64,000 nt of DNA from Winslowiella toletana (GTDB taxonomy: Bacteria > Pseudomonadota > Gammaproteobacteria > Enterobacterales > Enterobacteriaceae): positions 3,038,001 through 3,102,000 of the forward strand of contig NZ_JAGGMQ010000001.1 of NCBI RefSeq assembly GCF_017875465.1, written 5' to 3'. The notes under the pieces were generated by a model that had not been told where the DNA came from, ran no database searches, and saw nothing but the letters and a program-made list of their open reading frames with translations. This document shows, in pieces, positions 19,438 through 41,232 of the stretch. Every line of letters begins with the position of its first letter. Position 1 is the first letter of the stretch. Position numbers and translations under genes: made by a program.

Positions 19438-19443
19438 GGCAAA

Positions 19444-20220: not shown

Positions 20221-20227
20221 AAGAGGG

Positions 20228-20905: not shown

Positions 20906-20957
20906 AGTGTGTTCCTCGCTAATTAGGATCAGTTTTCATCATGAATGTTGCATTGAT

Positions 20958-20985: not shown

Positions 20986-21059
20986 AGCAAAAGAGGATTT
21001 TTTTTTCGGGCAGGAAGAAAAGGGCATCGCCCACCGGTCTGATTCAGGTGGGCAGCTAT

Positions 21060-22040: not shown

Positions 22041-22375
22041 AAATTCTCCAGTGGCTTAACGTAAACGCCGGATCCCAACATGCTGGCGTTAAAGCAATCC
22101 TGTTTGAAGCAATAGTGAAGCTGAGCTGATGTAAGTCTTGTTGTAAAAAATTACAAATCTTAAGTCAGCTTTACTCTCGCCCATGGTTGCCTGATTGCGC
22201 TATCAGTCCTGGATGATAGTTGTGTAGGGATTATCCATGACCCTGTAGGGATATCCTTACAGCGACCGACAGAATAAGCGTAAATACAATCAATTATGCT
22301 AAGTGGCCGATAGTGCGGTTGATGCGGTGAAACTTTTATGACCATCAGACAACGGAACGCTGCTGAGATTAATTT

Positions 22376-22403
22376 GGAACTCATCGATAGCATCGCCCAC
22401 CTA
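22376..22403 (+). promoter_or_regulatory. HrpL-dependent promoter (hrp box) for the harpin operon
   Basis: GGAACT (22376-22381), 15 bases, CCACCTA (22397-22403) on the plus strand. It is 147 bases before the first harpin-like start, leaving a long leader. The gap from 22041 to 22550 holds no other convincing gene. Confidence 0.85.
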
Positions 22404-22550
22404 TTAATCGAGTCGAAACCTGAAAAACCGCCCGAAATGTCAGTTAAATGTAAGTAAATTGGCATGCAGGCGACCATAAACTGTAAAGGTGGTAACCGGT
22501 TGCGGCTCAAAAACATTCAAAACGATTACGTTTACTCGAGGAGTTATCCA

Positions 22551-23703: not shown

Positions 23704-23721
23704 GCCCGGAGGAACTATTCG

Positions 23722-24816
23722 ATGGCAATTCAATTAGGTAACGGGGGAGGTCTCTCTCCCGGCATACTGAGCGATATAAAGATGCCGCCCGGCGCGCAAA
23801 GCCCGGCAGCATCGGGCCAGTTATCGCTGAAGAAAGATGCCAGCACCATCAGCTACGGTGGCAGTGGCGGCGGCATCGCTGACAGTAGCTTGCTGTCTGG
23901 TAAGCAGAGCAGCGCCGGGCAGCTGTCTCAGCAGAACGGCGCCGGAATGTTGCAGGGCATGCTGATGCTGCTGGGTATGCAGGCGCTGATGCAGTCGATG
24001 GGCGCAGGTAATACTGAGGGCGCGCAAGCGGAGGCCACCGCATTGCCGGAAGAGTCGGCAGCGGGCAGCGGTACTGCCGATCCTAATATTCGCTCCAGCG
24101 AGAAGGATCTTACCGTCAAACCGAGCGAAGAGAATCTGCAGGGGCGTCCGGTCGGTGATAACCGTACTGCCGATCAGATTATCGATGACAACCCGGTGCT
24201 GAAGAACCTTGGCGATCAGAAAGACATCAAGCGCGATGAGCTGAAACAGCGCTTTGGTGACTGGACTGAAGACAATAAGGATCCGAAAAGTCGCGCCGAT
24301 GCTGCTTACAATATGTCCTGTGTGCTGAACAGCATTAAAGGGCTGAACGGCAGCGACGGCAGCGAGCGGACGGAAATCTCAGCTAATGACAAGATCGAAG
24401 GGATCACTAAAGACGGCGATGCGCGTCACGGCACTGAAGCCGGTGTGCTGAAGGATGTGGCTGAGCAGGGTCTGAAGATGCTGCCGGACAACAAAAATCT
24501 GCCGGAAACCAGTGATACTCATGTGCGCAAAGATGGCACCAATAAAGATAACTTCCAGTGGGGAATGGGCGAGATTGGTAAGGTGCTATCCAATATCCCT
24601 ATCCTGAAATCGGTGCTGGCGCCAACCTTTAACAATATTGGCGAAGCGCGCGATCTGGGCGAAGTGTTTACTGGTGGCCTGAAAGGGCTGGGAGAGGGGG
24701 CATTAAGCGCGGCGCGCGGCCCGGTCGGCTGGGGGATAACTGCCGCCACTGATACCGTGCAAATTGCGATGGAAAATGCCAATAAAGATAAGAAAGACCC
24801 GCCGCCGTTCTCCTGA
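23722..24816 (+). CDS. Harpin/HrpK-HrpF-type putative translocator
   Basis: A 364-residue protein. The N-terminal 140 residues are harpin-like (Gly/Ser/Gln-rich, with GMLMLLGMQALMQSMGAG). The C-terminal part is a folded polar domain (ADQIIDDNPVLKNLGDQKD; KDGDARHGTEAGVLKD) resembling what I remember of HrpK/HrpF translocator domains. It ends with a Gly/Ala-rich, weakly hydrophobic stretch (LGEGALSAARGPVGWGITAA). It has one Cys and no signal peptide. GGAGGAA precedes the start. It may help effectors such as DspE cross the host membrane. The HrpK match is from memory of motifs, so the call is moderate. Confidence 0.65.
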   Translation: MAIQLGNGGGLSPGILSDIKMPPGAQSPAASGQLSLKKDASTISYGGSGGGIADSSLLSGKQSSAGQLSQQNGAGMLQGMLMLLGMQALMQSMGAGNTEGAQAEATALPEESAAGSGTADPNIRSSEKDLTVKPSEENLQGRPVGDNRTADQIIDDNPVLKNLGDQKDIKRDELKQRFGDWTEDNKDPKSRADAAYNMSCVLNSIKGLNGSDGSERTEISANDKIEGITKDGDARHGTEAGVLKDVAEQGLKMLPDNKNLPETSDTHVRKDGTNKDNFQWGMGEIGKVLSNIPILKSVLAPTFNNIGEARDLGEVFTGGLKGLGEGALSAARGPVGWGITAATDTVQIAMENANKDKKDPPPFS

Positions 24817-26105: not shown

Positions 26106-26948
26106 ATGGAAATGCTAAAGTTACCTGCCACAATATTTACCACACAAAGGAAATTTGAAGACTATACTGCGGAAGATATGCGATATGGCGATTTATCATC
26201 ATCTCAATTAAAAGAAAAATTTAAACTTAACGCTATTTCTGAAGTAGCAGATCCTTATACGCTTACCAGACTCACTCCTTTTGATTCGCCGAGATCAAGA
26301 TTCGCCAACGTTTATGGAAGCGGAAGAGGTGAGAAATTAACCATCAGAGAGTGCGCTAATCTTCTTTTTGATGAAATGCGCGTATTGTCCTGGCCTTTCT
26401 CCTTTTACAGCCCATATAAGCAGCTGATTAACCGAATGTTAACGCATATGCAGAATAAAAATGGCATATCATTTCGGGATTCTATTTTTAATTTGGCGCT
26501 GGCAAACCAGATTACTCTGAATAAATCTAAAGAGAGTTCTCTTGAGACTATTAAATCAATAATAAATAAAAATGTAGACTATGAAAGAAAAGGTTACCCA
26601 GAATCAAAGTTGGGAGCGTTCTCGGATGCATTAAAAGTCACTGTGTTGCCTAAATTCACCAGATTTTCTGATAACATCAACGGCCTTGGCATAACTGTGC
26701 ATGATATCCATGCGATGCGTATCAAGCTGATAAATTTAGAAGTGAACCATAACCGCTGGAAGGCAAATGTGCAGTATCAGGCACAAGATCACTTTGGCCT
26801 TGATAACAATGATATAATGAAAACCAAGTTTAATCAGTTTAGATTCTTCAGGATCTGGTTTGTACTTCAACGTTACGAGAAGTTTGGATTCAGACCTTTT
26901 ATGACAGATATGGAGACTACATTAGTGATAGAAGGCGGATCGAGATGA
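26106..26948 (+). CDS. DUF3289 (YPO3983-type) protein, full-length copy
   Basis: A 280-residue cytosolic-looking protein without signal peptide. Conserved blocks are EDMRYGDLSSSQLKEKF (23-39), ITVHDIHAMRI (196-206), DHFGLDNNDIM and FRIWFVLQRYEKFGFRPFMT near the C-terminus. These recur in the shorter paralogue at 37083. Function is unknown. The family often sits with small DUF943 membrane proteins in enterobacterial accessory islands, so a toxin or effector role is suspected but unproven. The region is AT-rich compared with the core. Its stop overlaps the next gene (ATGA). Confidence 0.8.
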   Translation: MEMLKLPATIFTTQRKFEDYTAEDMRYGDLSSSQLKEKFKLNAISEVADPYTLTRLTPFDSPRSRFANVYGSGRGEKLTIRECANLLFDEMRVLSWPFSFYSPYKQLINRMLTHMQNKNGISFRDSIFNLALANQITLNKSKESSLETIKSIINKNVDYERKGYPESKLGAFSDALKVTVLPKFTRFSDNINGLGITVHDIHAMRIKLINLEVNHNRWKANVQYQAQDHFGLDNNDIMKTKFNQFRFFRIWFVLQRYEKFGFRPFMTDMETTLVIEGGSR

Positions 26949-27382
26949 AAAAAATTGTAGCTTTTGGTGTTGTTATCGCAGTCGCGGTATTTGTTATATT
27001 TGATAATTACTTATCACGCCCGGTTAAGGTCGTTGATGTACATATGACAAATTATAGCGCGACTATACTTGTTGACCATTTACCTGTAACGGATATACAG
27101 AGGATTGAGTGGTGGAAAGAGAACAAGGCAGAGATTTTAAGTAAGTATAAAATTCCTTTAGAGAACACTTATGGGGATTTATCGTATTATGTTATGGCCT
27201 TTGGCGATGGCTATAAAGAATTGGGAAAAGAGGACAGGCTTTGCTTTGATGATATTCCGCCGCCAAAGAACTGCATTGATAAAGAGCGGTTGCTTACTGT
27301 GCGTACGACGCGCGATGGGGGGACGGAGTATGTTTTGAAAGGTGGGGTTTATGTTGAGGGGAGGGATGGGGAGGTGCGATAA
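26945..27382 (+). CDS. DUF943 membrane-anchored protein (partner of DUF3289)
   Basis: A 145-residue protein with one N-terminal membrane helix (IVAFGVVIAVAVFVIF) and an outward domain. Conserved parts are RIEWWKENKAEILSKY, CFDDI with a second Cys about 8 residues later, and TVRTTRDGG. It is translationally coupled to the DUF3289 gene. A membrane-anchored partner downstream of a soluble protein resembles an immunity protein; this is inference. The same pair recurs at 37083-38140. The next 200 bases contain no supportable gene. Confidence 0.8.
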   Translation: MKKIVAFGVVIAVAVFVIFDNYLSRPVKVVDVHMTNYSATILVDHLPVTDIQRIEWWKENKAEILSKYKIPLENTYGDLSYYVMAFGDGYKELGKEDRLCFDDIPPPKNCIDKERLLTVRTTRDGGTEYVLKGGVYVEGRDGEVR

Positions 27383-27583: not shown

Positions 27584-28141
27584 TTGTTTGCTAAGAACAT
27601 TCCCGCAGAAAAGCAGGCTTTAATGCGCTCAAGTTTTTCAGAAATATCCAAGGGTGTACAGCGGGATGAACTTTCCCCTTTAGATAAAGAAGTTGCAAAA
27701 CAAATCAAGGGCCAAGCCAGTAGCAACAAGCAGATATTCACCTTTATCTACCACAATATTTTTCTGTCCATTGATGCGATGGCCGGCCACCTTGATATTA
27801 TGGGCGAAATGTATTCCGAATTTCTCAAATATGCTTTAGGTGACGGTAAATATTCTTTAGAACAACAGGCGTCAATCATCGCTGATTACTGGCTGTTATT
27901 AGTTTATGGAATAAACGAGTGGAGATACTATCAACAGCCTTCACGTATCGGAAAATACTGTGGCAAATTTTCGCTTTCACCTTTTTCGATAAGGGCGATT
28001 CGTGACTGGCTCAGTCCTGTGCGGTCGCCGAGCGCGCGAGCACTCATACCAAGTGCCGTCCTGATCAGGTTTACCCACCCTTTTTTTGGACGCTTAGCTT
28101 CCCGACTGCTCGTCATATTGCTGAGCAATCTGTCTACTTGA
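27584..28141 (+). pseudogene. Chimeric reading frame: fragment of an unknown helical protein joined to antisense sequence
   Basis: The frame is open from 27539 without an ATG; the first possible start is TTG 27584. Residues about 1-125 look like real protein (helical, LSPLDKEVAKQIKGQA; QASIIADYWLLLVYGINEW). From about 27960 the frame runs antisense to the truncated regulator at 27931-28167 and becomes Arg/Ser/Leu-rich, so that part is not real. I do not recognise the N-terminal part. It looks like the 3' remains of a gene cut at both ends during rearrangement. Confidence 0.45.
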
Positions 28142-28167
28142 TTGATTTTAAGATCTTTATTCCACAT
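27931..28167 (-). pseudogene. Truncated mobile mystery protein A-like HTH regulator
   Basis: A 78-residue frame with an XRE-type helix-turn-helix (KKGWVNLIRTALGMSARALGDRTGLSQSRIALIEKGE). This matches the start of 'mobile mystery protein A' as I remember it, which is about 150 residues and is coupled to a Fic-type protein B. Here homology stops near residue 65 and the frame ends soon after, exactly where the opposite-strand fragment begins. It is a remnant of a mobile-island gene pair. Confidence 0.65.
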
Positions 28168-28290
28168 TTCATTATCTTCTATATCGTATATGCAATGATT
28201 TTACATCTATTTCATAGTATATATGATATGAATTTTGCGTGTATTTATATTATATATACAATAAGTTTGTAGAAATTGATAACATAAAAA

Positions 28291-29727
28291 TCACCCCCGT
28301 CCCCTCCACACCCGACTAAAACTCATCACCATCGCCAGAACCGTCGCAGCCACCGCCACCCAGAGGCTTAATCTTACCGCCAGCGCTTCCTGCAGCGGAT
28401 TGTTCAGCGGCAGGACATACAGCGACAAAATAACGCCAACCAACGCCGCGCCCAGACACTGGCCAAAAGTGCGCATTATCGCCAGTACACCAGAGGCATA
28501 GCCGCTATTGACGCGCGACGCATTTGACAGTATCTCGCGGTTATTCGGGCTCTGAAAGCAGCCAAAGCCGATGCCGCATAACAGGCTGCGTGCGCCAATA
28601 TCCCACGCCTGCGCATGTTCAGGCAGTTGCGCCAGCAGCACCAGCCCGGCAGCAAAAACACATAATCCGACAGTCGAGATAATCGCCGCCGGGTAGCGGT
28701 CGGCGAGTCGTCCCGCATGCGGCGCGGCCAGCACAATACCTAGCGGCCACGGGATAAACAGCAGGGCGGAAACAAAGGCGCTGTAACCATAAACACTCTG
28801 GAACAGAAACGGTAAAGCCACAAAGGTGATCCCCTGGCTGATAAAGGATGCCAGCGAGGTTAACGCCGCCAGTGAAAAGCGCGCAGAAGCGAACATATCC
28901 AGCGGCAGCAGCGGTTTTGCCGCGCGGCGCTGACGCCAGATAAATGCCAGGCCAGCAATAATCGCAGTCAGTCCGTAAGTGATGGCTGTGTTCAGCGTCT
29001 CTGGTGCAAGTGCTCCTTCACCAGGCCGGGAAAAGCTGTTCGCCGCCATAATCAGTGCGCCCAGCATCACCGCCGAGAGAATAGCGCCCGCGATATCAAA
29101 TGGTTCTCGCGTTGACGTCTGTTTGCCAGGGATAACCCGTAAGCTGAGTATCATCGCGATAAGGCCCAGCGGAATATTGATGGCGAACAACCATTGCCAG
29201 CCTGTCGTCGACAGCAGGGTTCCGCCCAGCACCGGCGCGATAGCGGTGCTGGCGGCGATCAGCAGCGCATTGAGCCCAAGAATGCGGCCGAGCAGACGGT
29301 TAGGGAAAATCGAGCGCAGTATCGCGGGTGCAATACTCAGGGTTGCGGCGCCGCCAATGCCCTGCAATAAGCGCATCACAACCAGCATATCAAGCGACGA
29401 CGATAATGCGCAGCCGAGGGATGCCAGCGTAAACAGCAGAAGCCCGGTGGTAAACAGTGTGCGAAACCCTATCCGGGCTGCCAGCGCGGCAAATATCGCC
29501 AGCGTCATTGCCGCCGATAAAAGATAGCCGTTGGCGACCCAGACTGCTGATGCGGCGGAAACTTCCAGCGAACGGGCGATCTGCGGTAACGCGATATTGA
29601 CCATTGAACCGTCAAATACCGCCATCGTGGTGGTGGTCATTACCGCTGCCATGGCTAAACCACGTTCGCGGCCTGGCAGCCCTTCATCGCCCGGCTGGTC
29701 GGAGAATAATTCTGTCTTCTGCATCAT
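28291..29727 (-). CDS. MFS drug transporter, DHA2 (14-TM) family
   Basis: A 478-residue efflux-type MFS protein with about 14 hydrophobic helices. DHA2 motifs are visible: DGSMVNIALPQIA in TM1 and MRLLQGIGGAATLSIAPAIL with the antiporter-like GxxxGPxxGG equivalent (APVLGGTLLSTTGWQWLFAINIP). ATG 29727 is chosen with AAAGGG about 9 bases upstream. The LysR gene at 35887 is probably its original divergent regulator, now separated by the RiPP cassette. Confidence 0.88.
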   Translation of the reverse strand: MMQKTELFSDQPGDEGLPGRERGLAMAAVMTTTTMAVFDGSMVNIALPQIARSLEVSAASAVWVANGYLLSAAMTLAIFAALAARIGFRTLFTTGLLLFTLASLGCALSSSLDMLVVMRLLQGIGGAATLSIAPAILRSIFPNRLLGRILGLNALLIAASTAIAPVLGGTLLSTTGWQWLFAINIPLGLIAMILSLRVIPGKQTSTREPFDIAGAILSAVMLGALIMAANSFSRPGEGALAPETLNTAITYGLTAIIAGLAFIWRQRRAAKPLLPLDMFASARFSLAALTSLASFISQGITFVALPFLFQSVYGYSAFVSALLFIPWPLGIVLAAPHAGRLADRYPAAIISTVGLCVFAAGLVLLAQLPEHAQAWDIGARSLLCGIGFGCFQSPNNREILSNASRVNSGYASGVLAIMRTFGQCLGAALVGVILSLYVLPLNNPLQEALAVRLSLWVAVAATVLAMVMSFSRVWRGRG

Positions 29728-29823
29728 GGAAGCACCCTTTCTTCTGTGGAAGATTGATGCAGAAAATATAACCATGCAGCAGATAAGGCGGAAGGCGCAG
29801 CATTTGCAATTATAACCTGCATC

Positions 29824-29855
29824 AGACGCCTTCCCACTTTCTTCAACTGCGGATG
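29824..29855. repeat. Left copy of 32-bp imperfect direct repeat bounding the RiPP cassette
   Basis: Starts CAGACGCCTTCCCA, identical over 14 bases to the right copy at 35845-35876, and continues with TCTTCA and GCGGAT in register; about 26 of 32 positions agree. It lies 26 bases before the end of the exporter gene, upstream of the MFS gene. Confidence 0.75.
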
Positions 29856-29881
29856 TATAGCTTAATGTGTGACGTTACCGC

Positions 29882-32008
29882 TTAATCTGTAACCTCATAG
29901 CCTGATGGCACAAAAGTTTTATCTCTCAGGTTATAAACCCGATCGGCGACAGCAATCATCTCTGGCCGGTGAGCCACGAATACCCGTGTAACAGGCATCT
30001 GTTTTACCGCTTCATTGATCTTCCGCTCGTTAATAACGTCCAGGTCACTGGTGGCCTCATCAAGAAACAGAATGCGGGGACGCTTGTACAGCGCCCTGGC
30101 GAGCGACACGCGCTGTTTTTGTCCGCTAGAAAGAATACTTCCCATGTCACCCACCATCGTTTCGTATTGCATCGGCATCGCCATAATCTCATCATGGATT
30201 GCCGCTGCCGTGGCGCATTCATGCATCCAGTCAATATCAGGCTGTGGGGTAAAAGAAGTGATGTTATCCATGAGTGAGGCTGCAAATAATTTATCATCCT
30301 GCATGACAAACGCCGTGTGCCGACGGTATTCGTCAATACCAGTCTGGCGGACACTAACGCCATCAATAAATATCTCTCCTGAATGCGGAAGAGTCAGACC
30401 CGCCATAACATTGAGAAGCGTCGATTTACCACAGCCTGATGGGCCGATAATCGCTACGCTCTCGCCCGGTTTGATCTCCATATCTATCCCTTCGAAAATA
30501 AAGGGTTCCGCCTCACTGTAGCGAAATGAAAGCGCACTCAGGGTTAGCTGGCCGGATACGTTCTCAAGCCGTACAGGATTTAGCGGATTCCATGCACTTT
30601 CTGTTTCGGTTGCAGCAATATCTGTCAGGCGCTGCGTGTGGATCGAGATCAGACGAAAATCAAACAGCGAATTTATCACCTTCACTGAACGGGTAAGGAA
30701 CATATCTGCATAGAGCAGAAAAGCCAACAGAATACCCGCGGTCATTATGCCCGCTTCCATCAGGCTGCCGCCGATAAACAGGATCGCTGCCGATGAGAGA
30801 CCCGTCAGCAGAGCCGAAAGCGTCTGGTTAATAAGATCTATCTTTAACAGATGAGCGCGTGCATTCGCGGTATCAATAACCCGGTTAAGCCATGCGTTAC
30901 GCCGGTATTCAGCTAAATCAAACACTTTTACCGCTGCCACGCCGCGCACAGTCTCCAGAAAGTGGGATGATTGCTGGGCTTCATGCGCTATCGCCTCAAC
31001 TTTCGCCCCCATGCAGGTGTCATAGAACATTAATTTCACCCCCAGATAAACAGCGGCCATCAGCAGGGATATGATGGCCAAAAATGGGCTGTAAGCGAAC
31101 ATCAGCGCGATCAGCGCCAGCAGAATAAGTACGTCGAGCAGAGAAGTAAGCATTTCTGCCGTAAATGCTTCCTGCACCTCATTTAGCGAAGTCAGCCTCG
31201 AGGCAATATCTCCGACATGGCGCTTTTCAAAAAAGGCCACCGGCAGCTTTAGCAGGCGGTTAAAAAATCCGGCGCTCCACTGGATGCCAAGTGAATAACG
31301 TATCGCCATAAGCGTCCAGGCGCGAACCATACTAAGAATCGCACGCAGGATAAGCAGAAAAACGACGCCAGTTATAATAAAATTCAACATGTTGAGGTCG
31401 CTTGCCTTTAACGCAATATCAATAATAAATTGAGAGGCAAGAGGAACAGAAAGGGCCAGAATCTCGATAAACAGTGATAACAGAAGAATTTTACACAGCA
31501 CACGCCCAAGTCCGTCTACGCCGCGAAACATATCGCTGACAGTAATACTCTCGCTGATTTTTTCTTTTTTAAATTCGGCCTGAGGCCACACTTCCAGAGC
31601 GATGCCGGTAAATTTATTGGACAGTTCATTGATGCTGATAATTCTCTTTCCGGATGCGGGGTCATGGATGATAGCGCCTTTTTTGCTTATCTTTTTCAAC
31701 ACCACGAAATGGTTGAATGACCAGTGCAAAATACACGGAAGTTTAGTGCTGCTCAGCTCCTCCAGCTCAAGCCGCACTGCACGGGCATTCAGGTTTATTC
31801 GTCCTGCGGCTGTCATTATTTGCCTTAATGTCATGCCGTTACTTGAGACGTCAAAAAGTTTTCGCATCCCGTAAATATCTGTCTTGCGACCATACCATGC
31901 GGCTATCATTGCCAGGCAAGCTAATCCGCACTCAGTAACCTCTGTTTGCATTATTACCGGTAGCCTTTTGCTAAAAGACTGAAAAAATGCGCTGATATTA
32001 TATTGCAT
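29882..32008 (-). CDS. Peptidase-containing ABC transporter (C39 PCAT) of the RiPP cassette
   Basis: A 708-residue bacteriocin exporter. The N-terminal C39 peptidase has Gln21, catalytic Cys27 (TECGLAC), His100 (HWSFNHFVVL) and Asp116 (HDPASG). A six-helix membrane domain covers about 165-450. The nucleotide-binding domain has GPSGCGKST, the signature LSSGQKQR and Walker B ILFLDEAT. It should cut the precursor after its double glycine and export the product with the HlyD-like adaptor. It is the last gene of the cassette, starting 2 bases after the adaptor stop. Confidence 0.95.
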   Translation of the reverse strand: MQYNISAFFQSFSKRLPVIMQTEVTECGLACLAMIAAWYGRKTDIYGMRKLFDVSSNGMTLRQIMTAAGRINLNARAVRLELEELSSTKLPCILHWSFNHFVVLKKISKKGAIIHDPASGKRIISINELSNKFTGIALEVWPQAEFKKEKISESITVSDMFRGVDGLGRVLCKILLLSLFIEILALSVPLASQFIIDIALKASDLNMLNFIITGVVFLLILRAILSMVRAWTLMAIRYSLGIQWSAGFFNRLLKLPVAFFEKRHVGDIASRLTSLNEVQEAFTAEMLTSLLDVLILLALIALMFAYSPFLAIISLLMAAVYLGVKLMFYDTCMGAKVEAIAHEAQQSSHFLETVRGVAAVKVFDLAEYRRNAWLNRVIDTANARAHLLKIDLINQTLSALLTGLSSAAILFIGGSLMEAGIMTAGILLAFLLYADMFLTRSVKVINSLFDFRLISIHTQRLTDIAATETESAWNPLNPVRLENVSGQLTLSALSFRYSEAEPFIFEGIDMEIKPGESVAIIGPSGCGKSTLLNVMAGLTLPHSGEIFIDGVSVRQTGIDEYRRHTAFVMQDDKLFAASLMDNITSFTPQPDIDWMHECATAAAIHDEIMAMPMQYETMVGDMGSILSSGQKQRVSLARALYKRPRILFLDEATSDLDVINERKINEAVKQMPVTRVFVAHRPEMIAVADRVYNLRDKTFVPSGYEVTD

Positions 32009-32010
32009 CT

Positions 32011-33282
32011 CTATTCCATGCTGTCCGTTGCACGTTCATATGCCCGCCTGACAGGTATAAATAACCATTGGTAAACTTTTCTGGTTTTAACATATATTTC
32101 CGCTTCGACCTCCATGCCAGGTAAAAGCGAAATATTCAATTGCTGCTCTGTCAGCTCTGGTGTGACAATGATGCGAAAAAGTCCTTTGCCGCTATAATCA
32201 CTCTTTGCCTGTGCCGGGGATGTCATATTGACTGGTGCTACCGATATCGCTTCTATCGCGCCACGGATTTTCCCATACCACTGATAAGGGTATGCGGCCA
32301 CTCTCATTTTTACTTGCAACCCTCTGACGACTTCACCAATTGAATCAGAAGGCGAAAGTAGCTCAACTTTTGCCGTTGCGCCTTGCGGCACAAGCACAGC
32401 TATTCTCTGTCCAGCTGTTACCCTTTCACCAATATGTGCGCTTACGCTGGTTATGACGCCATCAAAGGGGGCGACAATTAAATATTCTTTGTTTTTCTCA
32501 GCATCAAGAATCCTTTGATCAATGGTTGCCAGTTCTATAATAAAGGATTCTTTTTTTTCATTTAAATCCCTGTCTACAGATGACGCTTGTTTCTGTAACT
32601 CCAGCAACTCACCTTGCAGAGTGATCCGCCTTACCTTCGATGAAGATAAACTTTCTGCTGATAAATAATAATCTTTTCGCCTGTCTATCAGATCCGAATC
32701 AAGCGCGATGCCTTTTTTTCTTAAGTGGGTATACAGCCTGGATTTTTCTGCGAACCATTCCTTCTGAATTTCGCTTTCTTGTATCAACGCTTCCAGGCTG
32801 TTAATTTCCTGCTGTTTTATTTTAGTTTTACTGGCCAGATAGAGACTATTTTTTTGAGCATTGCTAATGGTGATCTCAAGCTTTTTAGACAGTGCATCAC
32901 GTTGCTTTTTTAACAGCGCCATCATTTCAACGTTGGCAGGGCCAAGGTTGGTATGAATATCACTGCTTACCGTGAAAACCAGCTGGCCGCGTTTTATGAT
33001 TGTTCCCTCAAATGCAGAGGAACGGGTTATTATCCCATCACGTAGTGCCATTAACGCCACCGCTGGAGGATCATAAGCCACCATTCCGGTGACGTTTATC
33101 CGTTCGCTGTACGAACCAAACGTAATAATGGATACAGTGAAAATGCCGGTTATCAGGCCGGTTATCAGAAAAATAGTGAGACCTGACGGGACATGCAGAC
33201 GGGAAGGGCCAAACCATCCCTCACGCTTATGTTGCAATGCCTCGGCACGAAAGACTGACTCATCATCCTTTTCTGTTGTCAT
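32011..33282 (-). CDS. HlyD-family membrane fusion protein of the RiPP exporter
   Basis: A 423-residue periplasmic adaptor. One membrane helix lies at about 33-56 (GLTIFLITGLITGIFTVSII). A lipoyl-like half motif, a long coiled-coil region (about 130-270) and the second half motif with APFDGVITSV follow, then a beta-barrel. It pairs with the C39 ABC transporter for export through an outer-membrane channel (TolC is not encoded here). It overlaps the protease gene by 20 bases. Confidence 0.92.
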   Translation of the reverse strand: MTTEKDDESVFRAEALQHKREGWFGPSRLHVPSGLTIFLITGLITGIFTVSIITFGSYSERINVTGMVAYDPPAVALMALRDGIITRSSAFEGTIIKRGQLVFTVSSDIHTNLGPANVEMMALLKKQRDALSKKLEITISNAQKNSLYLASKTKIKQQEINSLEALIQESEIQKEWFAEKSRLYTHLRKKGIALDSDLIDRRKDYYLSAESLSSSKVRRITLQGELLELQKQASSVDRDLNEKKESFIIELATIDQRILDAEKNKEYLIVAPFDGVITSVSAHIGERVTAGQRIAVLVPQGATAKVELLSPSDSIGEVVRGLQVKMRVAAYPYQWYGKIRGAIEAISVAPVNMTSPAQAKSDYSGKGLFRIIVTPELTEQQLNISLLPGMEVEAEIYVKTRKVYQWLFIPVRRAYERATDSME

Positions 33283-34165
33283 CGGAAATAAAAACCTTAT
33301 TATTTTTAAAATCTATCAATAGCTTTCTGCTTTTGAGGAAGTTGTTACCTATAAGTCCATCAATATTGCCCATATGTTCAAAGTCACCGGCTACAATGAC
33401 CGCGCCAAAATGCTCGATTTTGCCATTCTTCGATTTCGTTTCCAGCATCAGTGCCTCGCATCCTTCATTATCCATCTCAGGATCGACAATAAGACAGCTC
33501 TCAGGTTGTCTGGATTTAAGTCTCTCACGCCAGATTATGGAAACGGTGGAACCTGTATCCATAATCAGATGATACTTATGCCCGGATTGCTCGGCTTGAA
33601 AGATCATGCCATCGGAAGACATTTGAAAAGAATATTCCTGAAAATTTTCTTTGATTTGCGATTCAGAAGCGATGTTGTCGCCAATGGTGAGTGATTTCCC
33701 CTTATAATCCAGTAATATTTGTTTATCTTTAAATGCACCTAACCCCACGACCTGGCTCTGCGGCAATTCACCTTCGCCAGAGATCATCAGCCCCCACTGC
33801 TTAAATGGAGTGACGGGGACATCTCTTAATTTCAACCCATTCATATCGAGAGATTTAGCCAGATACGCTATATTTTCCTGAACTTTACCTTTTCCATCAG
33901 TACTACGATATGTACGTTCTTTTTTTAATCCTTTGATTTTATTAAGTTGATTTTGATAAAGATGGAAACCAAATGAAGAACCCGTATCAACCATGGCATA
34001 GACCGGGGTGCCATTGATGACGAAATTTGCATGCGGGGTGGCAAGCTGATCAAAGCTCAGCGTTAAGGTTACGGATTTTTCCATATCAGCAAAGGATAGT
34101 GTCGTGCTAAAGGCGAATACAAAATATAAGCGGTTTAATAACCAGGTTATTATCATCTTCATCAT
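33263..34165 (-). CDS. Pepsin/retropepsin-like aspartic protease of the RiPP cassette
   Basis: A 300-residue protein with a signal peptide (residues about 1-26, ending SFA-D). Two active-site motifs, VDTGSS (Asp60) and MDTGST (about residue 206), show a single-chain, two-lobed aspartic protease, probably periplasmic. It lies between the radical SAM gene (9 bases upstream) and the HlyD gene. It may trim or degrade the modified peptide, or provide self-protection; the role is inference. Confidence 0.85.
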   Translation of the reverse strand: MMKMIITWLLNRLYFVFAFSTTLSFADMEKSVTLTLSFDQLATPHANFVINGTPVYAMVDTGSSFGFHLYQNQLNKIKGLKKERTYRSTDGKGKVQENIAYLAKSLDMNGLKLRDVPVTPFKQWGLMISGEGELPQSQVVGLGAFKDKQILLDYKGKSLTIGDNIASESQIKENFQEYSFQMSSDGMIFQAEQSGHKYHLIMDTGSTVSIIWRERLKSRQPESCLIVDPEMDNEGCEALMLETKSKNGKIEHFGAVIVAGDFEHMGNIDGLIGNNFLKSRKLLIDFKNNKVFISDDNRKG

Positions 34166-34174
34166 GCTTTCCAG

Positions 34175-35353
34175 CTATTTTTGAATGTTTTTCATGATTT
34201 CTTTTTCATCCACGCCCGATGCCATAAGATGCGATGCAGCGCGACTAAGAAATAATCTCATCGATTTGCAGAAAACGGTTTTATTGTTGAAACGATTAGT
34301 GCGTGAAAAACGATTTACCAGACGGCCGCCGTGGCAGATATTATTCCATACGCATTCTGCGCACACTGTCGGCAGATTGCTGCTTAACGCGAGATATTCT
34401 TTAACACAAGATGTTTCAAGTACCCTCGCCAGCGATAATTCACTGACATGCCCAACGGCATTGAATATCTCATCAGATGTCGAACGCAATGTGTCATCAA
34501 TACGCAGCATGCCGTCGGCTGTTACTGTAAAGGCATAGGCGGACTCAACATTAGCACTCATACCAAGCACCCGATTAAACTGGCTGTTTAGCATGGTGCC
34601 GAGATAAGTATTAAAGATTCGAATAAAGATTTCTGGCCGCCCATCAGCAAACCATGCATCCAGTGCCTCGTTCAGAAATCGGCCTACACCTTCGCCATCA
34701 GGGCTATCGTCGTGATGATCGTCTGGTATAAGAAAATCGAAACGCTGGCACTGGAGAGTATCGGCAAAGTGGCGATAAATCTCCGCACCATTTGCATTGG
34801 CGTTGGCCACTGAAAGTATGCCTGGTTCACCTGGCAGACGCCCTTGCTGCCACGCATTTTGCAGCAGGCGTAAACCGGTAATTGTGCCCTCGTAAGTGCT
34901 CTTCCCCTTACGGTCTAACCGATGACGGTCATTGATATGTTTTGGTCCGTCGACCGATATACTGGCATGCACCTGATGTTTTTCAAAAAGCGCAATCCAC
35001 TCGTCATCAATCAAAATGCCATTGGTTTGTAATGCCAGTTCAAATTTTGAACTGCGGTAGTTACCCTGCAAGAGAATCTGGCACATGCGATCGAAACGGT
35101 CTTTTTTCATCATCAGCGGTTCGCCACCGTGAAAGTCTACCTGAATAACCTCAATGTCATTTTCGGCAGCCGATCGTTCAAAAAATCCCCTCAGCGCGTA
35201 TACGTTATCCAGAGAAATTACCGGCGTGCTATCGGTTGCCAGTGTATTACCCATATTGAATACATAGCAGTAAGTACAATTAATATTGCAGCGTTCACTA
35301 ATTTTTAAAATTATTTCAAGATGCTTTATTTTTTCGCCTTTTAACTGTGTCAT
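34175..35353 (-). CDS. Radical SAM/SPASM RiPP maturase (XyeB/triceptide-type)
   Basis: A 392-residue radical SAM enzyme. The 4Fe-4S motif CNINCTYC holds Cys22, Cys26 and Cys29; HGGEP follows. The C-terminal SPASM-like region has Cys in VCAECVWNNICHGGRLVNR and a last FCKSMR. ATG 35353 is chosen for the GAGGAG upstream. It directly follows a small precursor whose core has W-I-N, F-A-N and W-T-K, the substrate pattern of enzymes that make three-residue cyclophanes (XyeB/XncB group). The reaction is thus predicted to be aromatic carbon-to-beta-carbon cross-linking. Confidence 0.88.
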   Translation of the reverse strand: MTQLKGEKIKHLEIILKISERCNINCTYCYVFNMGNTLATDSTPVISLDNVYALRGFFERSAAENDIEVIQVDFHGGEPLMMKKDRFDRMCQILLQGNYRSSKFELALQTNGILIDDEWIALFEKHQVHASISVDGPKHINDRHRLDRKGKSTYEGTITGLRLLQNAWQQGRLPGEPGILSVANANANGAEIYRHFADTLQCQRFDFLIPDDHHDDSPDGEGVGRFLNEALDAWFADGRPEIFIRIFNTYLGTMLNSQFNRVLGMSANVESAYAFTVTADGMLRIDDTLRSTSDEIFNAVGHVSELSLARVLETSCVKEYLALSSNLPTVCAECVWNNICHGGRLVNRFSRTNRFNNKTVFCKSMRLFLSRAASHLMASGVDEKEIMKNIQK

Positions 35354-35372
35354 GTGTATCCTCCTCCATGGG

Positions 35373-35401
35373 AAAACACGGGGGTGGAAATCTCCCCCGT
35401 G
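35373..35401 (-). terminator. Hairpin with T-run between RiPP precursor and maturase genes
   Basis: On the minus strand CACGGGGG and CCCCCGTG form an 8-bp stem with a 9-base loop, followed by TTTT. It begins 9 bases after the precursor stop. It probably acts as a leaky terminator so that precursor transcript exceeds enzyme transcript. Confidence 0.75.
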
Positions 35402-35410
35402 CAGTCTCAA

Positions 35411-35566
35411 TTAGATACGCTTAGTCCAGTTAGCAAAGGCATTTATCCAGCCGCCAGAGACAGTATCCAGCAGGCTATCAACAAGGATTTTACGCTGTGC
35501 TTTTTTATCGTCAGCATTATTCAGGCGGGCTTTGTTTGACGCGATTTCATGCTGTAATTTGCTCAT
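35411..35566 (-). CDS. RiPP precursor peptide (XyeA-like, double-Gly leader, WINAFANWTKRI core)
   Basis: A 51-residue peptide. ATG 35566 is chosen (AAGGA 7 bases upstream; the frame opens at 35605). The leader is charged and helical (KKAQRKILVDSLLDTVSGG), ending in Gly38-Gly39, the C39 cleavage site. The 12-residue core WINAFANWTKRI holds W-x-N, F-x-N and W-x-K triplets. It is first in the cassette, followed by an attenuator hairpin and the maturase. The product is likely a small cross-linked antibacterial peptide of the xenorceptide/triceptide kind, inferred by analogy. Confidence 0.88.
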   Translation of the reverse strand: MSKLQHEIASNKARLNNADDKKAQRKILVDSLLDTVSGGWINAFANWTKRI

Positions 35567-35591
35567 CTTAGATCCTTTTAAATGAGTTTGT

Positions 35592-35639
35592 AAGTGCTGA
35601 CGCACGGATTTGCGCCTGCTTAAAAAACATACAGCACTT
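35592..35639. promoter_or_regulatory. Inverted repeat in the RiPP precursor upstream region
   Basis: AAGTGCTG (35592-35599) and CAGCACTT (35632-35639) are perfect inverted arms with a 32-base spacer, 26 bases before the precursor start. They could be an operator or a leader hairpin. The remaining gap to 35844 is very AT-rich, with T-runs and TATATAA-like stretches where the promoter must lie; I cannot assign it. Confidence 0.45.
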
Positions 35640-35844
35640 TTCAGGGTTTTGTAATGATGTTTTTTTATAAGATGCGTTTTTTTATATAAGACGATATTTT
35701 ATAATGAGAATTTTTATGCTTGGTTATTTATATTTTTTAAAGTTACTATCACAATAATAATTTTATATATGAACGTTCAGCGATGACTTATCCTGATTAT
35801 TAATAATTATGAATAACAATTATTAGCTCTTTGCTGCCGAGAGC

Positions 35845-35876
35845 CAGACGCCTTCCCATACTCTTCACCAGCGGAT
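35845..35876. repeat. Right copy of 32-bp imperfect direct repeat bounding the RiPP cassette
   Basis: CAGACGCCTTCCCA is identical to the left copy at 29824; the rest is degenerate, with the matching ends GCGGAT. It ends 10 bases before the LysR start. Confidence 0.75.
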
Positions 35877-35886
35877 ACTATGCGTT

Positions 35887-36810
35887 ATGACTGAACCTGA
35901 CCTCAATTTACTGATCGCGCTTGATGTGCTGCTTGCCGAAGGAAGTGTGGCGGGTGCTGCGCGGCGTCTGAACTTAAGTGCTTCGGCGATGAGCCGCACG
36001 CTGAGCCGTCTGCGCGCGGTGACTGGCGATCCATTGCTGGTGCGGGCAGGGCGTAATATGGTGCTGACGCCCTATGCTGAGGAGATACGTGAGCGCACGC
36101 AAAATACCGTTTTTGCCGCGCGCGCCATCCTGCGTCCTGCAGCGTCAGAACTGCATTTATCCACGCTACAGCGCACATTTACCATTCGCGCTAACGATGG
36201 TTTTGTTGAGGCGTTTGGCGCGGCGCTGATTGCCGCTGCAGTAACGGTGGCCCCTTTGGTGCGTCTGCGCTTTGCGCCTAAGGCAGAAAAAAGCGCCAGG
36301 CCTTTACGCGAAGGGCTGGCTGATCTTGAAGTGGGTGTATTAAGCGATATGGGACCGGAAATACGTTTACAGGCGCTGTTCCGCGATCGTTTTGTCGGCG
36401 TGGTAAGAAAAGGCCATCCGCTGGCGCTGGAAGCGCAGGTGTCCGCCAGCCAGTATATCGCTTACGGTCATGTTGTCGCCTCTCGCCGTGGCGCGCTGAG
36501 CGGGCCTGTCGACAAAGCACTGGCTGAAATAGGCTTAGAACGCAATATCGCCGCTACGGTGCCGAGCTTTCCGGCGGCGCTGGCGGTGGCGCAGGCATCC
36601 GATCTGGTGGCGCTGGTGCCGGCATCATTCCTTAGCCATCAACGGCTTGTAGAGGGCGCGGTCGTCACACTCAGCGCGTTTGAACTACCAGTAAAAACCA
36701 GTGGCATCACCATTTCGCAGATGTGGCATCCGCGTTTAGAACTCGACCCGGCCCACCGCTGGCTGCGACAGCTGGTGCTGAGCGTCTGCCGCCAGCTGGC
36801 GCCGGAGTGA
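35887..36810 (+). CDS. LysR-family regulator
   Basis: A 307-residue LysR protein. The N-terminal HTH is LLIALDVLLAEGSVAGAARRLNLSASAMSRTLSRLR, followed by a linker helix and a substrate-binding domain (RLRFAPKAEKSARPL). It diverges from the MFS gene at 28291 with the RiPP cassette in between, so it is probably the regulator of that efflux gene. Base composition is core-like, unlike the cassette to its left. The 270 bases after it show nothing I can name. Confidence 0.88.
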   Translation: MTEPDLNLLIALDVLLAEGSVAGAARRLNLSASAMSRTLSRLRAVTGDPLLVRAGRNMVLTPYAEEIRERTQNTVFAARAILRPAASELHLSTLQRTFTIRANDGFVEAFGAALIAAAVTVAPLVRLRFAPKAEKSARPLREGLADLEVGVLSDMGPEIRLQALFRDRFVGVVRKGHPLALEAQVSASQYIAYGHVVASRRGALSGPVDKALAEIGLERNIAATVPSFPAALAVAQASDLVALVPASFLSHQRLVEGAVVTLSAFELPVKTSGITISQMWHPRLELDPAHRWLRQLVLSVCRQLAPE

Positions 36811-37082
36811 TCATTCGGCGCTATCATCAGTCAGCGCTAAAACCCTTTAACCGATTGCTTATTACTGACGTCCATAATAAGACACTTGTATGCAGTCTGA
36901 AAAATTAAAGACGTTACATACAGTCATGGTTTTTCGATGTGCCAGTCGAAAGATTAAAATATTATCGTCCCAACGACTAATGATCAGAAATATGTGATCA
37001 GGCACATTTTATATAAACGTGCATTTACGTTATAAAGCAGATATAGAGCATGAAGCTCAATAATCATAAGAAGGAATCTTCA

Positions 37083-37658
37083 ATGTCACTCCCCTCGGTT
37101 GCATTACAGTTTCCCTTTACACTTTATCAGACTAAAAACACGTTCGATGATTATGATGCTAATGATATGCGGTATGGTGATTTAAGCGAGCACTGTCTGA
37201 AAGGCCATTATAATTTAAAAGCCATCGTTGAAGGTATTGATCCCTGGAACAGTGAGGTTGAGACATACCCGTCAGGCAATTACGCTTTTTCCCGCCCGGT
37301 AATTATTAATCAATCAACCAATCATCGTGAAATCGCAAAGCTATTATTTGACCACTTCAGACGCCACTCCTGGCTGGATAAGTACAATGGATTAAGTGTT
37401 TCGATTCATGATGTTTACGCTACTCAGATAACTATTGAATCATTATATATTGATGAAACTCGCTTTCGGGCAAAAATACATTATAAAGGACAGGACCATT
37501 TTGGTCTGGATGTTCAAGATATAATGAACCTTCGTTTCCATCACATCCCTATTTTTCGTATCTGGTTTGTTTTGCAACGTTGGGAAAAGTTCGGTTTTAA
37601 ACCGTTTATGACCAATATGTCAGCCACTCTGGATATCACCGGAGAGCGAAATAGATGA
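37083..37658 (+). CDS. DUF3289 protein, short paralogue
   Basis: A 191-residue paralogue of the protein at 26106. Shared blocks are NDMRYGDLSEHCLKGHY, LLFDHFRRHSW, SIHDVYATQI, DHFGLDVQDIM and FRIWFVLQRWEKFGFKPFMT. Residues about 97-188 of the longer copy are missing. Both ends are intact and the join is in frame, so it is more likely a natural short form or clean deletion than a pseudogene. ATG 37083 has AAGGAA 7 bases upstream. Function unknown. Confidence 0.8.
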   Translation: MSLPSVALQFPFTLYQTKNTFDDYDANDMRYGDLSEHCLKGHYNLKAIVEGIDPWNSEVETYPSGNYAFSRPVIINQSTNHREIAKLLFDHFRRHSWLDKYNGLSVSIHDVYATQITIESLYIDETRFRAKIHYKGQDHFGLDVQDIMNLRFHHIPIFRIWFVLQRWEKFGFKPFMTNMSATLDITGERNR

Positions 37659-38140
37659 AATATTTAATATTTAAAATATTAATTGGGTTGTGGTTGATCG
37701 TAATTTCGCTTTTGTTGTGGAAGATATCTCGTCCGGTAGAGATTGTTGCGATACATTATGAGAAAGCTTCCAGTGATATTCTGGTGAAAAACTTCCCACT
37801 GACTATTAATCGAAAGATAGCGTGGTGGCAGGAAAACAGAACCATGCTGAAGGAAAAGTATGGTCTGCCAGCGCTGGAGACGAATGGACTACGATGGATA
37901 TCTTTCTGGAATTTTGGTGAGGGTTATCAGATTGAAAAACCCGGAGATACTTCCTTTCCCAGTAAAGATACATCTTATCTGCTCTGCTTCGATGATATAA
38001 AGGTGGCAGAAAGGTGTATTGTAAAAGATCGCCAGATGCACATCAGCATCACTCGCGATGGGGTAGTGCTTATCTACTTTGGCAGAAAAGTCTTTATTGA
38101 ACGGCCAGATGGCGAGATTGTACGGGGCAAGGACCTCTGA
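37655..38140 (+). CDS. DUF943 membrane-anchored protein, second copy
   Basis: A 161-residue protein with one N-terminal membrane helix (LIFKILIGLWLIVISLLLW). Shared features with the copy at 26945 are SRPVEI, KIAWWQENRTMLKEKYGLP, LLCFDDI with a second Cys, SITRDG and FIERPDGEI. It overlaps the DUF3289 stop by ATGA, as the first pair does. The constant pairing supports a functional unit such as effector plus immunity, not shown. The 38141-38371 gap has no gene I can support. Confidence 0.8.
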   Translation: MKYLIFKILIGLWLIVISLLLWKISRPVEIVAIHYEKASSDILVKNFPLTINRKIAWWQENRTMLKEKYGLPALETNGLRWISFWNFGEGYQIEKPGDTSFPSKDTSYLLCFDDIKVAERCIVKDRQMHISITRDGVVLIYFGRKVFIERPDGEIVRGKDL

Positions 38141-38371: not shown

Positions 38372-39334
38372 ATGGCTCTGCCTGGCTTAAATCCCGAAAA
38401 AAGCATGATGGATTACGATTTCGCGCATCTCTTTGGTCAGGGAGCGCCTGATCTTGATTTTAAAGCGCTTGGTTCATCAATGGATTGCACTCGCGAGTTT
38501 TGTCAGGCAGGAATTATCTATGCAGATGGCCCCCATAAATATCTGGTGAGACCCGGCAACAGGCATCCGAACGGACAGAGCGGCGTTGTCACGCATGTGA
38601 TTGTCACCAAAACCCCGCCGCAAGGTTCACAAAACAGCGTAGGAAAAACACTCTCCGAAGCCGTTTCTGCTACCTCGTTAGGCACCGAGATTGCCTCAAC
38701 GGTACTCTCTTGTGGCGCCATGATCATTACTGCTGGTGTGGCGATTGCGGGCGGTGCGGCGACACCGATAACCGCCGGTGCCAGTGGCGCACTGGTCGCG
38801 CTGGGATATGCGGGCGCTGCCGCCACCGGTCTGCAATGTATCAATGGGATGTACCGCCTTTATGATATTGGGGAAACCAGTGGTGAGAATGTTGCATGGC
38901 TGGACTCGCAAAACTGGTATATGACCACCTCGACCGCACTTGACCTGATTTCTCTTGCCAGCGCCGGTGGTGCTTTGAAAGAAGCTGTTGCTACCTATCG
39001 CGCGATGAAATCCGTATCGTCGTTAAAAGTGACTGAGTGGCTGAAAAATTATTCACGCCAGGACCGCGCACGACTTACTGAATTAATTATTCGGGTACAA
39101 AACCCGGGCATTACGGCTAAAGAAATTAAGATAGCGCTGCGCGCTGGCCTCTACCCGAAACGTTTTCCCATTGAGCCAATTCAGAATGAACTGAGAAAAC
39201 AACTTGCAGCGGTGGTCACCAGCGCTGCAGCGCTGGCGGGTAGTGCGGTCAGTGGCGTTATTGCCGCCCCTGGCAATATCTCAAAATCAGGACGCTATAT
39301 TTTTGGCACCATCCAATCTCTTGCGGTAATTTAA
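38372..39334 (+). CDS. Putative membrane-active effector (Gly/Ala-rich hydrophobic core)
   Basis: A 320-residue protein I do not recognise. Residues about 105-155 form two long Gly/Ala-rich hydrophobic segments (IASTVLSCGAMIITAGVAIAGG; ASGALVALGYAGAAATG) in an otherwise soluble protein without signal peptide. A third hydrophobic part lies near 275-300. This layout is common in pore-forming type VI or colicin-like effectors. Its stop overlaps the start of a multi-TM protein, as toxin-immunity pairs do. RBS AAGGAAAAGG. Toxin function is inferred from layout and context only. Confidence 0.6.
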   Translation: MALPGLNPEKSMMDYDFAHLFGQGAPDLDFKALGSSMDCTREFCQAGIIYADGPHKYLVRPGNRHPNGQSGVVTHVIVTKTPPQGSQNSVGKTLSEAVSATSLGTEIASTVLSCGAMIITAGVAIAGGAATPITAGASGALVALGYAGAAATGLQCINGMYRLYDIGETSGENVAWLDSQNWYMTTSTALDLISLASAGGALKEAVATYRAMKSVSSLKVTEWLKNYSRQDRARLTELIIRVQNPGITAKEIKIALRAGLYPKRFPIEPIQNELRKQLAAVVTSAAALAGSAVSGVIAAPGNISKSGRYIFGTIQSLAVI

Positions 39335-39927: not shown

Positions 39928-40038
39928 TAAATTTTACTAATAAAATAATAACTATAAGTAAATGGTTAGGTAATCCCCCCGAAAAACCGGTGTGTTCATA
40001 AGTAGAATTTTCTCGTAACCTGAACCGGGGAGATCTCT

Positions 40039-40305
40039 ATGAAAAAATCACGTTTCACTGACAGCCAGATCATGTCCATCCTGAAGCAAGCCGAGGCAGG
40101 AACGCCGGTGGCCGAACTGTGCCGCGAGCATGGCATGAGCAACGCCAGTTTCTATAAGTGGCGTTCACGCTTTGGCGGGATGGATGCTTCCATGATGACC
40201 CGCCTCAAAGAACTGGAAGAGGAAAACCGTCGCCTCAAAAAAATGTATGCTGAAGAGCGTCTCAAGGCCGAAATTATTCAGGAAGCCATGGCAAAAAAGT
40301 GGTGA
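40039..40305 (+). CDS. IS3-family transposase OrfA
   Basis: An 88-residue DNA-binding subunit. It starts with the HTH ([39 protein letters not shown]) and ends in a leucine zipper ([20 protein letters not shown]). The A6G slippery run at 40293-40299 lies just before its stop, allowing a -1 shift into orfB to make the full transposase. Confidence 0.93.
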
Positions 40306-41126
40306 AGCCATCGCGTCGAAAGCAGATGGCGCAAGAAGCCGTCAGGAGCCGAAACGTCAGCGTGCGTTTTGCCTGCCGGCTGTTTGTTGTCAGCGAAAGT
40401 TGCTATCGCTACCAGCCGCAACGAAATGAAGAAAATGACGTCATCGCCGACTGGCTGCTCCGTATCACTGACAGTCAGCGTAACTGGGGATTTGGCCTGT
40501 GTTTTCTGTATCTGCGTAACGTAAAAGGTTTCCAGTTTAACCATAAAAGGGTGTACCGGATTTATTGCGGGTTGTCGCTTAACATGCGGATCAAGCCGAA
40601 AAAACGACTGAAACGGGATAAACCTGAGCCACTGATGGTGCCTGAAAGTGGCAACGAATGCTGGTCGATGGATTTCATGCATGATCAGCTATCGGATGGA
40701 CGTTCTGTTCGTTTACTGAATGTTATCGATGACTTTAATCGGGAAGCGCTGGCGATTGAGGTGGATTTTTCCCTGCCAGCGAGTCGGGTGGTCAGAACGC
40801 TGGAGCAGCTCATTGAATGGAAGGGAAAACCAGCAGCTATCCGGTGCGATAACGGGCCAGAATATACAGGCAGGATACTGATGTCATGGGCGGCCCGACA
40901 GAATATAACCCTGCGTTTTATTCAGCCCGGTAAACCTCAGCAGAACGCTTATATTGAGCGATATAATCGTACAGTACGCTATGACTGGCTAGGGCAGTAC
41001 CTGTTTTCCTCGCTGGATGAATTGCAGGACTATGCCACACGCTGGCAATGGTTTTATAATCACGAGCGTCCGAATATGGCATTGAATGGCTACACGCCGA
41101 TGCAGCATATTCAACGCATGACCTGA
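40299..41126 (+). CDS. IS3-family transposase OrfB (DDE integrase)
   Basis: A 275-residue catalytic part with a complete DDE triad: Asp in [12 protein letters not shown], Asp in IRCDNGPEY, and Glu in [12 protein letters not shown]. It overlaps orfA by 7 bases in the -1 frame and is made as an OrfAB fusion by frameshifting at AAAAAAG. Both frames are intact, so the element may be active. Confidence 0.93.
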
Positions 41127-41232
41127 TTCTACTTATCACCTCCGTTAAAAATGGGAGGATTACCGTTATAGTGATAAGATTACTAACGTTAAACCACCGT
41201 TAATAATAACGTAAGGTTTTCTCAGGACCGGT

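What the first reader, a model, noticed from the sequence alone, without database searches (positions are those of the whole stretch)
29824..35876. Five-gene radical-SAM RiPP (triceptide/xenorceptide-like) cassette
A 51-residue precursor with a double-Gly leader and core WINAFANWTKRI is followed by a radical SAM/SPASM enzyme, a two-lobed aspartic protease, a HlyD adaptor and a C39-peptidase ABC exporter, all tightly packed on one strand. The W-x-N, F-x-N and W-x-K triplets are the pattern cyclised by XyeB-type enzymes to three-residue cyclophanes. Three triplets in 12 residues would give a small, highly strained peptide, perhaps a Gram-negative-active antibiotic. Genes and motifs are seen directly; product class and activity are by analogy.
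Basis: partly seen in the sequence, partly recalled or inferred. Interest (0 to 1): 0.9.

Follow-up and report, generated by a model that had tools for sequence, protein, structure and literature searches.

The report
Xenorceptide-type antibiotic peptide gene cassette
A bacterium, probably an Erwinia, carries an inserted five-gene set for a small ring-stitched peptide of a known antibiotic family; the family is not new, but one gene of the set, a protease, survives in decayed copies elsewhere and may protect the producer.

Summary
On the minus strand lie a 51-residue precursor (core WINAFANWTKRI), a radical SAM/SPASM maturase, a two-lobed aspartic protease, a HlyD adaptor and a C39-peptidase ABC exporter. 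Precursor and maturase pass the curated NCBIfam cut-offs for XyeA (89 bits, cut-off 33) and XyeB (791 bits, cut-off 450). The maturase is 83% identical to a Xenorhabdus nematophila XyeB and shares a well-supported clade with it; Xenorhabdus genomes carry the same five genes in the same order. This is a new member of a known kind, the xenorceptide/triceptide cassettes. The tail NWTKRI matches darobactin B (WNWTKRF) except at the last residue, which fits the BamA target reported for xenorceptides; activity was not tested. The cassette is a roughly 6-kb insertion between LysR and MFS genes that are neighbours in a sister genome. Less expected: a stem-loop after the precursor gene in 13 of 13 cassettes tested, and four decayed cassettes in which, of the five genes, only the aspartic protease is intact. 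It may be the self-protection gene. That is untested; three of the four loci were found by searching with the protease, and a fifth decayed cassette does not show it.

The parts
35411..35566 (-). xyeA precursor, 51 aa, leader ending GG, core WINAFANWTKRI
   Evidence: TIGR04495 89.1 bits vs cut-off 33; AAAAGGATCTAAG before the ATG
35354..35410 (-). intergenic stem-loop CACGGGGG/CCCCCGTG followed by TTTT, likely attenuator that keeps precursor mRNA in excess over maturase mRNA (inferred)
   Evidence: MFE -20.2, z -2.05; stem-loops after the xyeA stop codon in 13 of 13 cassettes tested against shuffles, z -1.7 to -6.0
34175..35353 (-). xyeB radical SAM/SPASM cyclophane-forming maturase, 392 aa
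   Evidence: TIGR04496 790.6 bits vs cut-off 450; tree; CxxxCxxC at 22, SPASM cysteines at 331-340
33263..34165 (-). aspartic protease, 300 aa, hydrophobic N terminus, two DTG motifs, pepsin-type fold
32011..33282 (-). HlyD-type periplasmic adaptor
   Evidence: PF13437 E 5.2e-15; TIGR01843 100.2 bits, under its 208.65 cut-off
29882..32008 (-). C39-peptidase ABC exporter
   Evidence: PF03412, PF00664, PF00005; Cys27/His100/Asp116 and Walker A present
29823..29854 (.). left 32-nt direct repeat at insertion boundary
   Evidence: its first 14 nt occur exactly twice in the whole genome
35845..35876 (.). right 32-nt direct repeat at insertion boundary (84% identical to left)
28291..29775 (-). flanking MFS transporter, not part of the cassette
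   Evidence: PF07690; next to LysR in G396/L114 without the cassette
35887..36810 (+). flanking LysR-type regulator, not part of the cassette
   Evidence: PF00126/PF03466

Best explanation
A horizontally acquired xye (xenorceptide-type triceptide) cassette. XyeA is made in excess, with a stem-loop damping read-through into xyeB. XyeB joins Trp1-Asn3, Phe5-Asn7 and Trp8-Lys10 by aryl-to-beta-carbon bonds. The C39 domain of the ABC protein cuts after Gly-Gly while exporting the three-ring 12-mer with HlyD and, presumably, the host TolC. The pepsin-like protease, probably exported to the periplasm, acts on the exported peptide, either trimming it or protecting the producer. The product most likely binds the BamA lateral gate of competing Gram-negative bacteria. 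Shown here: genes, motifs, family membership, conserved order, insertion. Inferred: excess of precursor, ring chemistry, cleavage site, TolC, place and role of the protease, target.
For: Curated family hits. Maturase 83% identical to an X. nematophila XyeB, P0018, same clade. Same five genes in the same order in X. indica, X. stockiae and X. sp. BG5 and in G441, whose contig length equals that of P0018; the annotated X. bovienii record has xyeA, xyeB, hypothetical, HlyD, ABC. Core pattern held in most of 21 distinct cores. XncB ring chemistry from review passages (PMC11002830); xenorceptides as BamA inhibitors from review passages (PMC12971899). Tail NWTKRI vs darobactin B WNWTKRF (passages of PMC8694152, PMC13067283). 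Natural empty site in G396.
Against: No product was seen. Trp-to-Lys closure by a XyeB enzyme is not in the passages I read. The last residue is Ile, not the Phe of darobactins A and B. The host BamA gate strands shown are identical to those of a sister genome without the cassette, so if BamA is the target the producer must be protected in another way. No promoter stands out: 11 promoter-like sites against a mean of 11.8 in shuffles, and the upstream region is poorly conserved (46% mean column identity in 7 loci). The G+C contrast (41-50% in the cassette, about 55-58% in the two flanking genes) is weak evidence of transfer, because windows further out are 38-52%.
Confidence: 0.87

Rival explanations
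1. The aspartic protease is a maturation protease: after C39 removes the leader it trims the exported peptide, as the only extra protease in the cassette.
For: Found in 10 of 10 loci that have XyeB of 46% identity or more, 10-kb flanks asked for, and the ABC gene, in two gene orders; also in L120 and L121. N-terminal hydrophobic stretch consistent with export. Gly-Gly cleavage by C39 already accounts for leader removal, leaving trimming as a job.
Against: In G406, G446 and G012 the maturase is deleted or reduced to a remnant and in G393 it is broken, yet the protease frame is open. The darobactin cluster as described in PMC9055067 (passages) lists no protease.
Confidence: 0.4
2. The aspartic protease is the self-protection (immunity) gene: it cleaves or sequesters the peptide in the periplasm.
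For: Of five decayed cassettes of the window's clade found, the protease is intact in four, with different lesions; an intact maturase or HlyD is seen in none. No other immunity candidate in the cassette, and no unusual BamA gate in the host. Peptidases that give resistance to another peptide antibiotic are known (S51 family and microcin C; title and start of abstract of PMC9239234).
Against: Three of the four loci (G406, G446, G012) were found by searching with the protease. The fifth (G425, found with HlyD) has an intact ABC gene; its contig ends before the protease would start and no close protease was found in that genome. dN/dS of G446 and G012 against the intact G160 is 0.24 and 0.28, against 0.11-0.26 for intact Xenorhabdus-type pairs under dS 1.2, so selection after decay is not shown; decay may be recent. 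In the more distant G236 both XyeB and the protease are broken.
Confidence: 0.35
3. The cassette is silent or decaying and makes nothing.
For: Decayed copies exist in Erwinia- and Xenorhabdus-type genomes; no clear promoter match.
Against: All five window frames are open, with intact catalytic motifs in the three enzymes checked.
Confidence: 0.1

Closest known systems
XncA/XncB (Xenorhabdus nematophila) xenorceptide cassette
   Different: Core WINAFANWTKRI versus WINAFGNWERAFH (P0012); third triplet WTK rather than WER; host probably Erwinia
Erwinia amylovora XyeA (P0008, strain Ea644) and XyeB (P0024)
   Same: Core WVNAFANWTKRI differs by one conservative residue; maturase 77%
   Different: G393, which by its protease is E. 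amylovora, carries a broken copy
Darobactin cluster (DarA/DarE)
   Same: Radical SAM maturase; C-terminal W-T-K-R-F of darobactin B resembles W-T-K-R-I; a Trp-x-Lys C-C ring
   Different: The DarE model scores 84.8 bits against cut-off 650 on this maturase; darobactin has a Trp-O-Trp ether, a 7-residue core preceded by no Gly-Gly, and no protease listed in its cluster
YhhB/FxsB triceptide enzymes
   Same: Radical SAM/SPASM cyclophane formation
   Different: Below their cut-offs (260.7 vs 445; 196.9 vs 370); separate branch

Membership tests
XyeA precursor (TIGR04495) | score over curated cut-off | tested here: met
   89.1 bits vs 33
XyeB maturase (TIGR04496) | score over curated cut-off, full length | tested here: met
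   790.6 bits vs 450, profile 1-385 of 385
XyeB maturase (TIGR04496) | phylogenetic place with the characterised XncB | tested here: met
   13-row clade, support 100/99, holding P0018 of X. nematophila; that P0018 is the very XncB accession of the review was not checked
Triceptide / xenorceptide | aryl-to-beta-carbon crosslinks in aromatic-x-x triplets | not testable with these tools
   Only the triplets are seen (WIN, FAN, WTK)
Triceptide / xenorceptide | precursor, maturase and GG-type exporter encoded together | tested here: met
BamA inhibitor (bamabactin) | binding to the BamA lateral gate and killing of Gram-negative bacteria | not testable with these tools
   Reported for xenorceptide A2 in review passages (PMC12971899); here only the tail similarity to darobactin B
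Darobactin/DarE | score over NF038005 cut-off | tested here: not met
   84.8 bits vs 650
Pepsin-like aspartic protease | two lobes, each with a DTG motif, and pepsin fold | tested here: met

The most novel reading that the evidence does not exclude
The cassette's pepsin-like protease is the immunity determinant for a BamA-targeting peptide antibiotic, and it persists as an orphan immunity gene in lineages (Erwinia, Xenorhabdus) that have lost the peptide, the maturase and the exporter. That would be a new way of self-protection among producers of BamA inhibitors.
Probability: 0.3. Interest if true: 0.65.

Novelty: new member of a known kind. Interest (0 to 1): 0.4.

Why it matters
It adds an Erwinia-type carrier and a further core to a family of peptides reported to inhibit BamA, a sought-after Gram-negative target. 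How makers of such peptides avoid poisoning themselves I did not find answered: the literature searches cover an open-access library that lacks most subscription journals, and the passages on self-resistance in three of the papers listed do not describe how darobactin or xenorceptide producers protect themselves. The orphan-protease pattern makes one answer directly testable.

Tried and rejected
Darobactin, dynobactin, YhhB and FxsB filing: all below their curated cut-offs. Self-protection through an altered BamA: no support. The G000 BamA is identical to that of sister G396 over the 45 residues printed around strand 1 and over the last 30 residues, and only one residue (558 Q, a variable column) is absent from all 33 non-carriers of the genus; non-carriers here include G406, and G393 was set apart. 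Plasmid or phage carriage: the nearest plasmid maturase is 51% (X. bovienii); no phage record matches the protease; no E. coli record matches its DNA in 'distant' mode. A solved relative of the protease by sequence: only two acetyltransferase matches at E 0.15 and 0.39. Conserved promoter motif: nothing clear in 7 aligned upstream regions. Known RNA family: none at gathering threshold in 28000-38000. Flanking direct repeats as a shared mobility mechanism: the longest exact repeat between 800-bp flanks was 8-10 nt in 10 of 10 other cassettes, 14 nt in the window, where 20 shuffles gave at most 11.

Rows left out. Stem-loop test: 13 cassettes with an identifiable, intact xyeA and xyeB. From I left out L003 and L009 (precursor frame lost or disrupted), L122 (broken), and L004 and L006 (same sequence as L017 and L015); L171 was added; L013, L014 and L024 were typed only in their first 50-63 bases, and all rows were cut at 55. 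L218 was folded later without shuffles (stem present) and L221 is nearly the same as L017. Stems are not all independent: L002 and L024, and L035 and L171, share much of their stem sequence. Loci without a found precursor (such as L007, L008, L010, L016, L018, L020) were not tested. Core count: by pattern, including one core each from the broken G393 copy and from P0009, whose end looks aberrant; it misses divergent precursors and L171, whose core is WVNVFARWDKAI. Tree: 64 rows, 60 of them from the 120 listed, chosen by length and spread. Protease co-occurrence: L002 and L008 were cut short of the place and not counted; L016 has neither exporter nor protease; L019 is a 5.9-kb contig. L035 has XyeB in three pieces, in an old assembly, with full protease, HlyD and ABC matches; I counted it as intact.
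Full report
What is there. Five genes lie head to tail on the minus strand: xyeA 35411-35566, xyeB 34175-35353, an aspartic protease 33263-34165, HlyD 32011-33282 and a C39 ABC exporter 29882-32008. The precursor passes TIGR04495 (89.1 bits, cut-off 33) and the maturase TIGR04496 (790.6 bits, cut-off 450). Pfam finds Radical_SAM, Asp_protease_2, HlyD_3, Peptidase_C39, ABC_membrane and ABC_tran. Catalytic motifs are intact: CxxxCxxC at 22-29 and SPASM cysteines at 331-340 in XyeB, Cys27/His100/Asp116 in the C39 domain, Walker A, and DTG at 60 and 203 in the protease.

Relatives. The precursor search returned 13 proteins, one being the window's own entry, which stands for three contigs. In the other 12 the core WINAFANWTKRI does not occur; an Erwinia amylovora protein has WVNAFANWTKRI and X. 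nematophila WINAFGNWERAFH. Among 21 distinct cores collected by pattern, own included, 20 begin W[VI]N, 14 have F-x-N as second triplet and 17 have W-x-K as third. The best other maturase is 84% identical, that of X. nematophila 83%. In a 64-row tree the window enzyme lies in a 13-row clade with it (support 100/99). Over-cut-off XyeB matches occur in 8 of 392 genomes sampled in the family, own included, and 3 of 37 in the genus, own included; a fourth, G393, has a partial match.

Host. G393 of the same genus carries a protease 99.7% identical to an E. amylovora record, and the G406 contig length (452063) equals that of the E. piriflorinigrans protease record. The genus is therefore most likely Erwinia (inference). 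An hrp-like type III secretion region in the window fits.

Insertion. In G396 the LysR and MFS genes stand about 119 bp apart; in the window about 6.0 kb more lies between them. The insert is bounded by 32-nt direct repeats, 84% alike, whose first 14 nt are identical; that 14-mer occurs exactly twice in the genome, with three more places at one mismatch. G+C is 41-50% in the cassette and about 55-58% in the two flanking genes, but 38-52% in windows further out, so composition adds little. No gene in the insert looks like an integrase. In 10 other cassettes no such repeat was found. The lineage gained the cassette, or G396 lost it; the doubled boundary sequence favours gain. How it moved is open.

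Stem-loop. After the xyeA stop codon the RNA can form CACGGGGG...CCCCCGUG followed by UUUU (z -2.05, 7 of 200 shuffles as stable). In 13 of 13 cassettes tested the stretch after xyeA folds into a stem (z from -1.7 to -6.0, mean -2.9), and so does L218, the X. nematophila-type locus. Each z alone is modest. Stem sequences differ widely between groups but are alike in near relatives (L002/L024, L035/L171), so the cases are fewer than 13 independent ones. The likely job is attenuation between precursor and maturase, a common arrangement in peptide operons (own knowledge, recalled).

Target. Review passages state that xenorceptide A2 adds a strand to the BamA barrel and closes its lateral gate (PMC12971899). 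Darobactin B is WNWTKRF (passages of PMC8694152, PMC13067283, PMC10107326); the window tail is NWTKRI, relatives P0002-P0005 end NWTKRF and L004/L017 end NWSKSF, the tail of darobactin A. The maturases fall in different curated families, so the likeness of the tails is probably convergent (inference). The host BamA shows nothing unusual in the gate strands printed.

Against that reading: G406, G446 and G012 were found by searching with the protease; only G393 was found through XyeB. A control search with HlyD in 30 Xenorhabdus-type and 37 Erwinia-type genomes found one more decayed cassette, G425, with intact ABC and HlyD in two frames; its contig ends before the protease would start, and no close protease or XyeB was found in that genome. 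In G236, a more distant cassette, both XyeB and the protease are broken. So among five decayed cassettes of the window's clade the protease is intact in four and not found in one, ABC is intact in one, and an intact HlyD or XyeB is seen in none. dN/dS for G446 and G012 against G160 is 0.24 and 0.28, against 0.11-0.26 for intact Xenorhabdus-type pairs under dS 1.2; this does not show selection after decay. No control search was run with xyeA or the ABC gene.

Verdict. The system is a new member of a known kind. The protease-as-immunity idea and the positional stem-loop are what a specialist might not expect.

Noticed in passing
window 39966-41164: IS3-family element; the best-ranked plasmid copies are 88% identical over 86% of a 1401-base query.
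   Followed up: partly
window 15808-24816: hrp-like type III secretion genes: secretin, YscJ/FliF lipoprotein, YscI/HrpB, a sigma-54 activator, then Gly/Gln-rich frames that look harpin-like by eye; the two of them scanned have no Pfam match.
   Followed up: partly
window 38372-39334: Ssp4-family T6SS effector, 360.7 bits against cut-off 300.
   Followed up: no
window 26106-27382 and 37050-38140: Two DUF3289-DUF943 gene pairs on either side of the MFS-cassette-LysR stretch; the right DUF3289 matches in two pieces (202 vs 280 aa). G396 also has two DUF3289 places flanking LysR-MFS.
   Followed up: partly
L168, L169, L170 (G413, G417, G399): Three genomes of the genus have a second bamA; in L168 it lies beside a gene for an exported protein that looks like Skp (by eye). 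No XyeB at E 1e-100 in these genomes.
   Followed up: partly
L200, L222, L206, L208, L209, L210: A second, divergent aspartic protease in six Xenorhabdus-type genomes (34% identity in L200 and L222, where no other xye gene lies nearby); five of the six matches run over one TAA, not examined.
   Followed up: partly
L003 (G315): The precursor frame runs past the usual stop after WINAFANW, so the core end is altered or the frame is broken, while XyeB and the protease are open.
   Followed up: no
L091 (G000 contig 2): The 135-kb second contig of the host carries a formate hydrogenlyase region; a Pantoea alfalfae plasmid is 94.7% identical over 85% of the 18-kb query.
   Followed up: no
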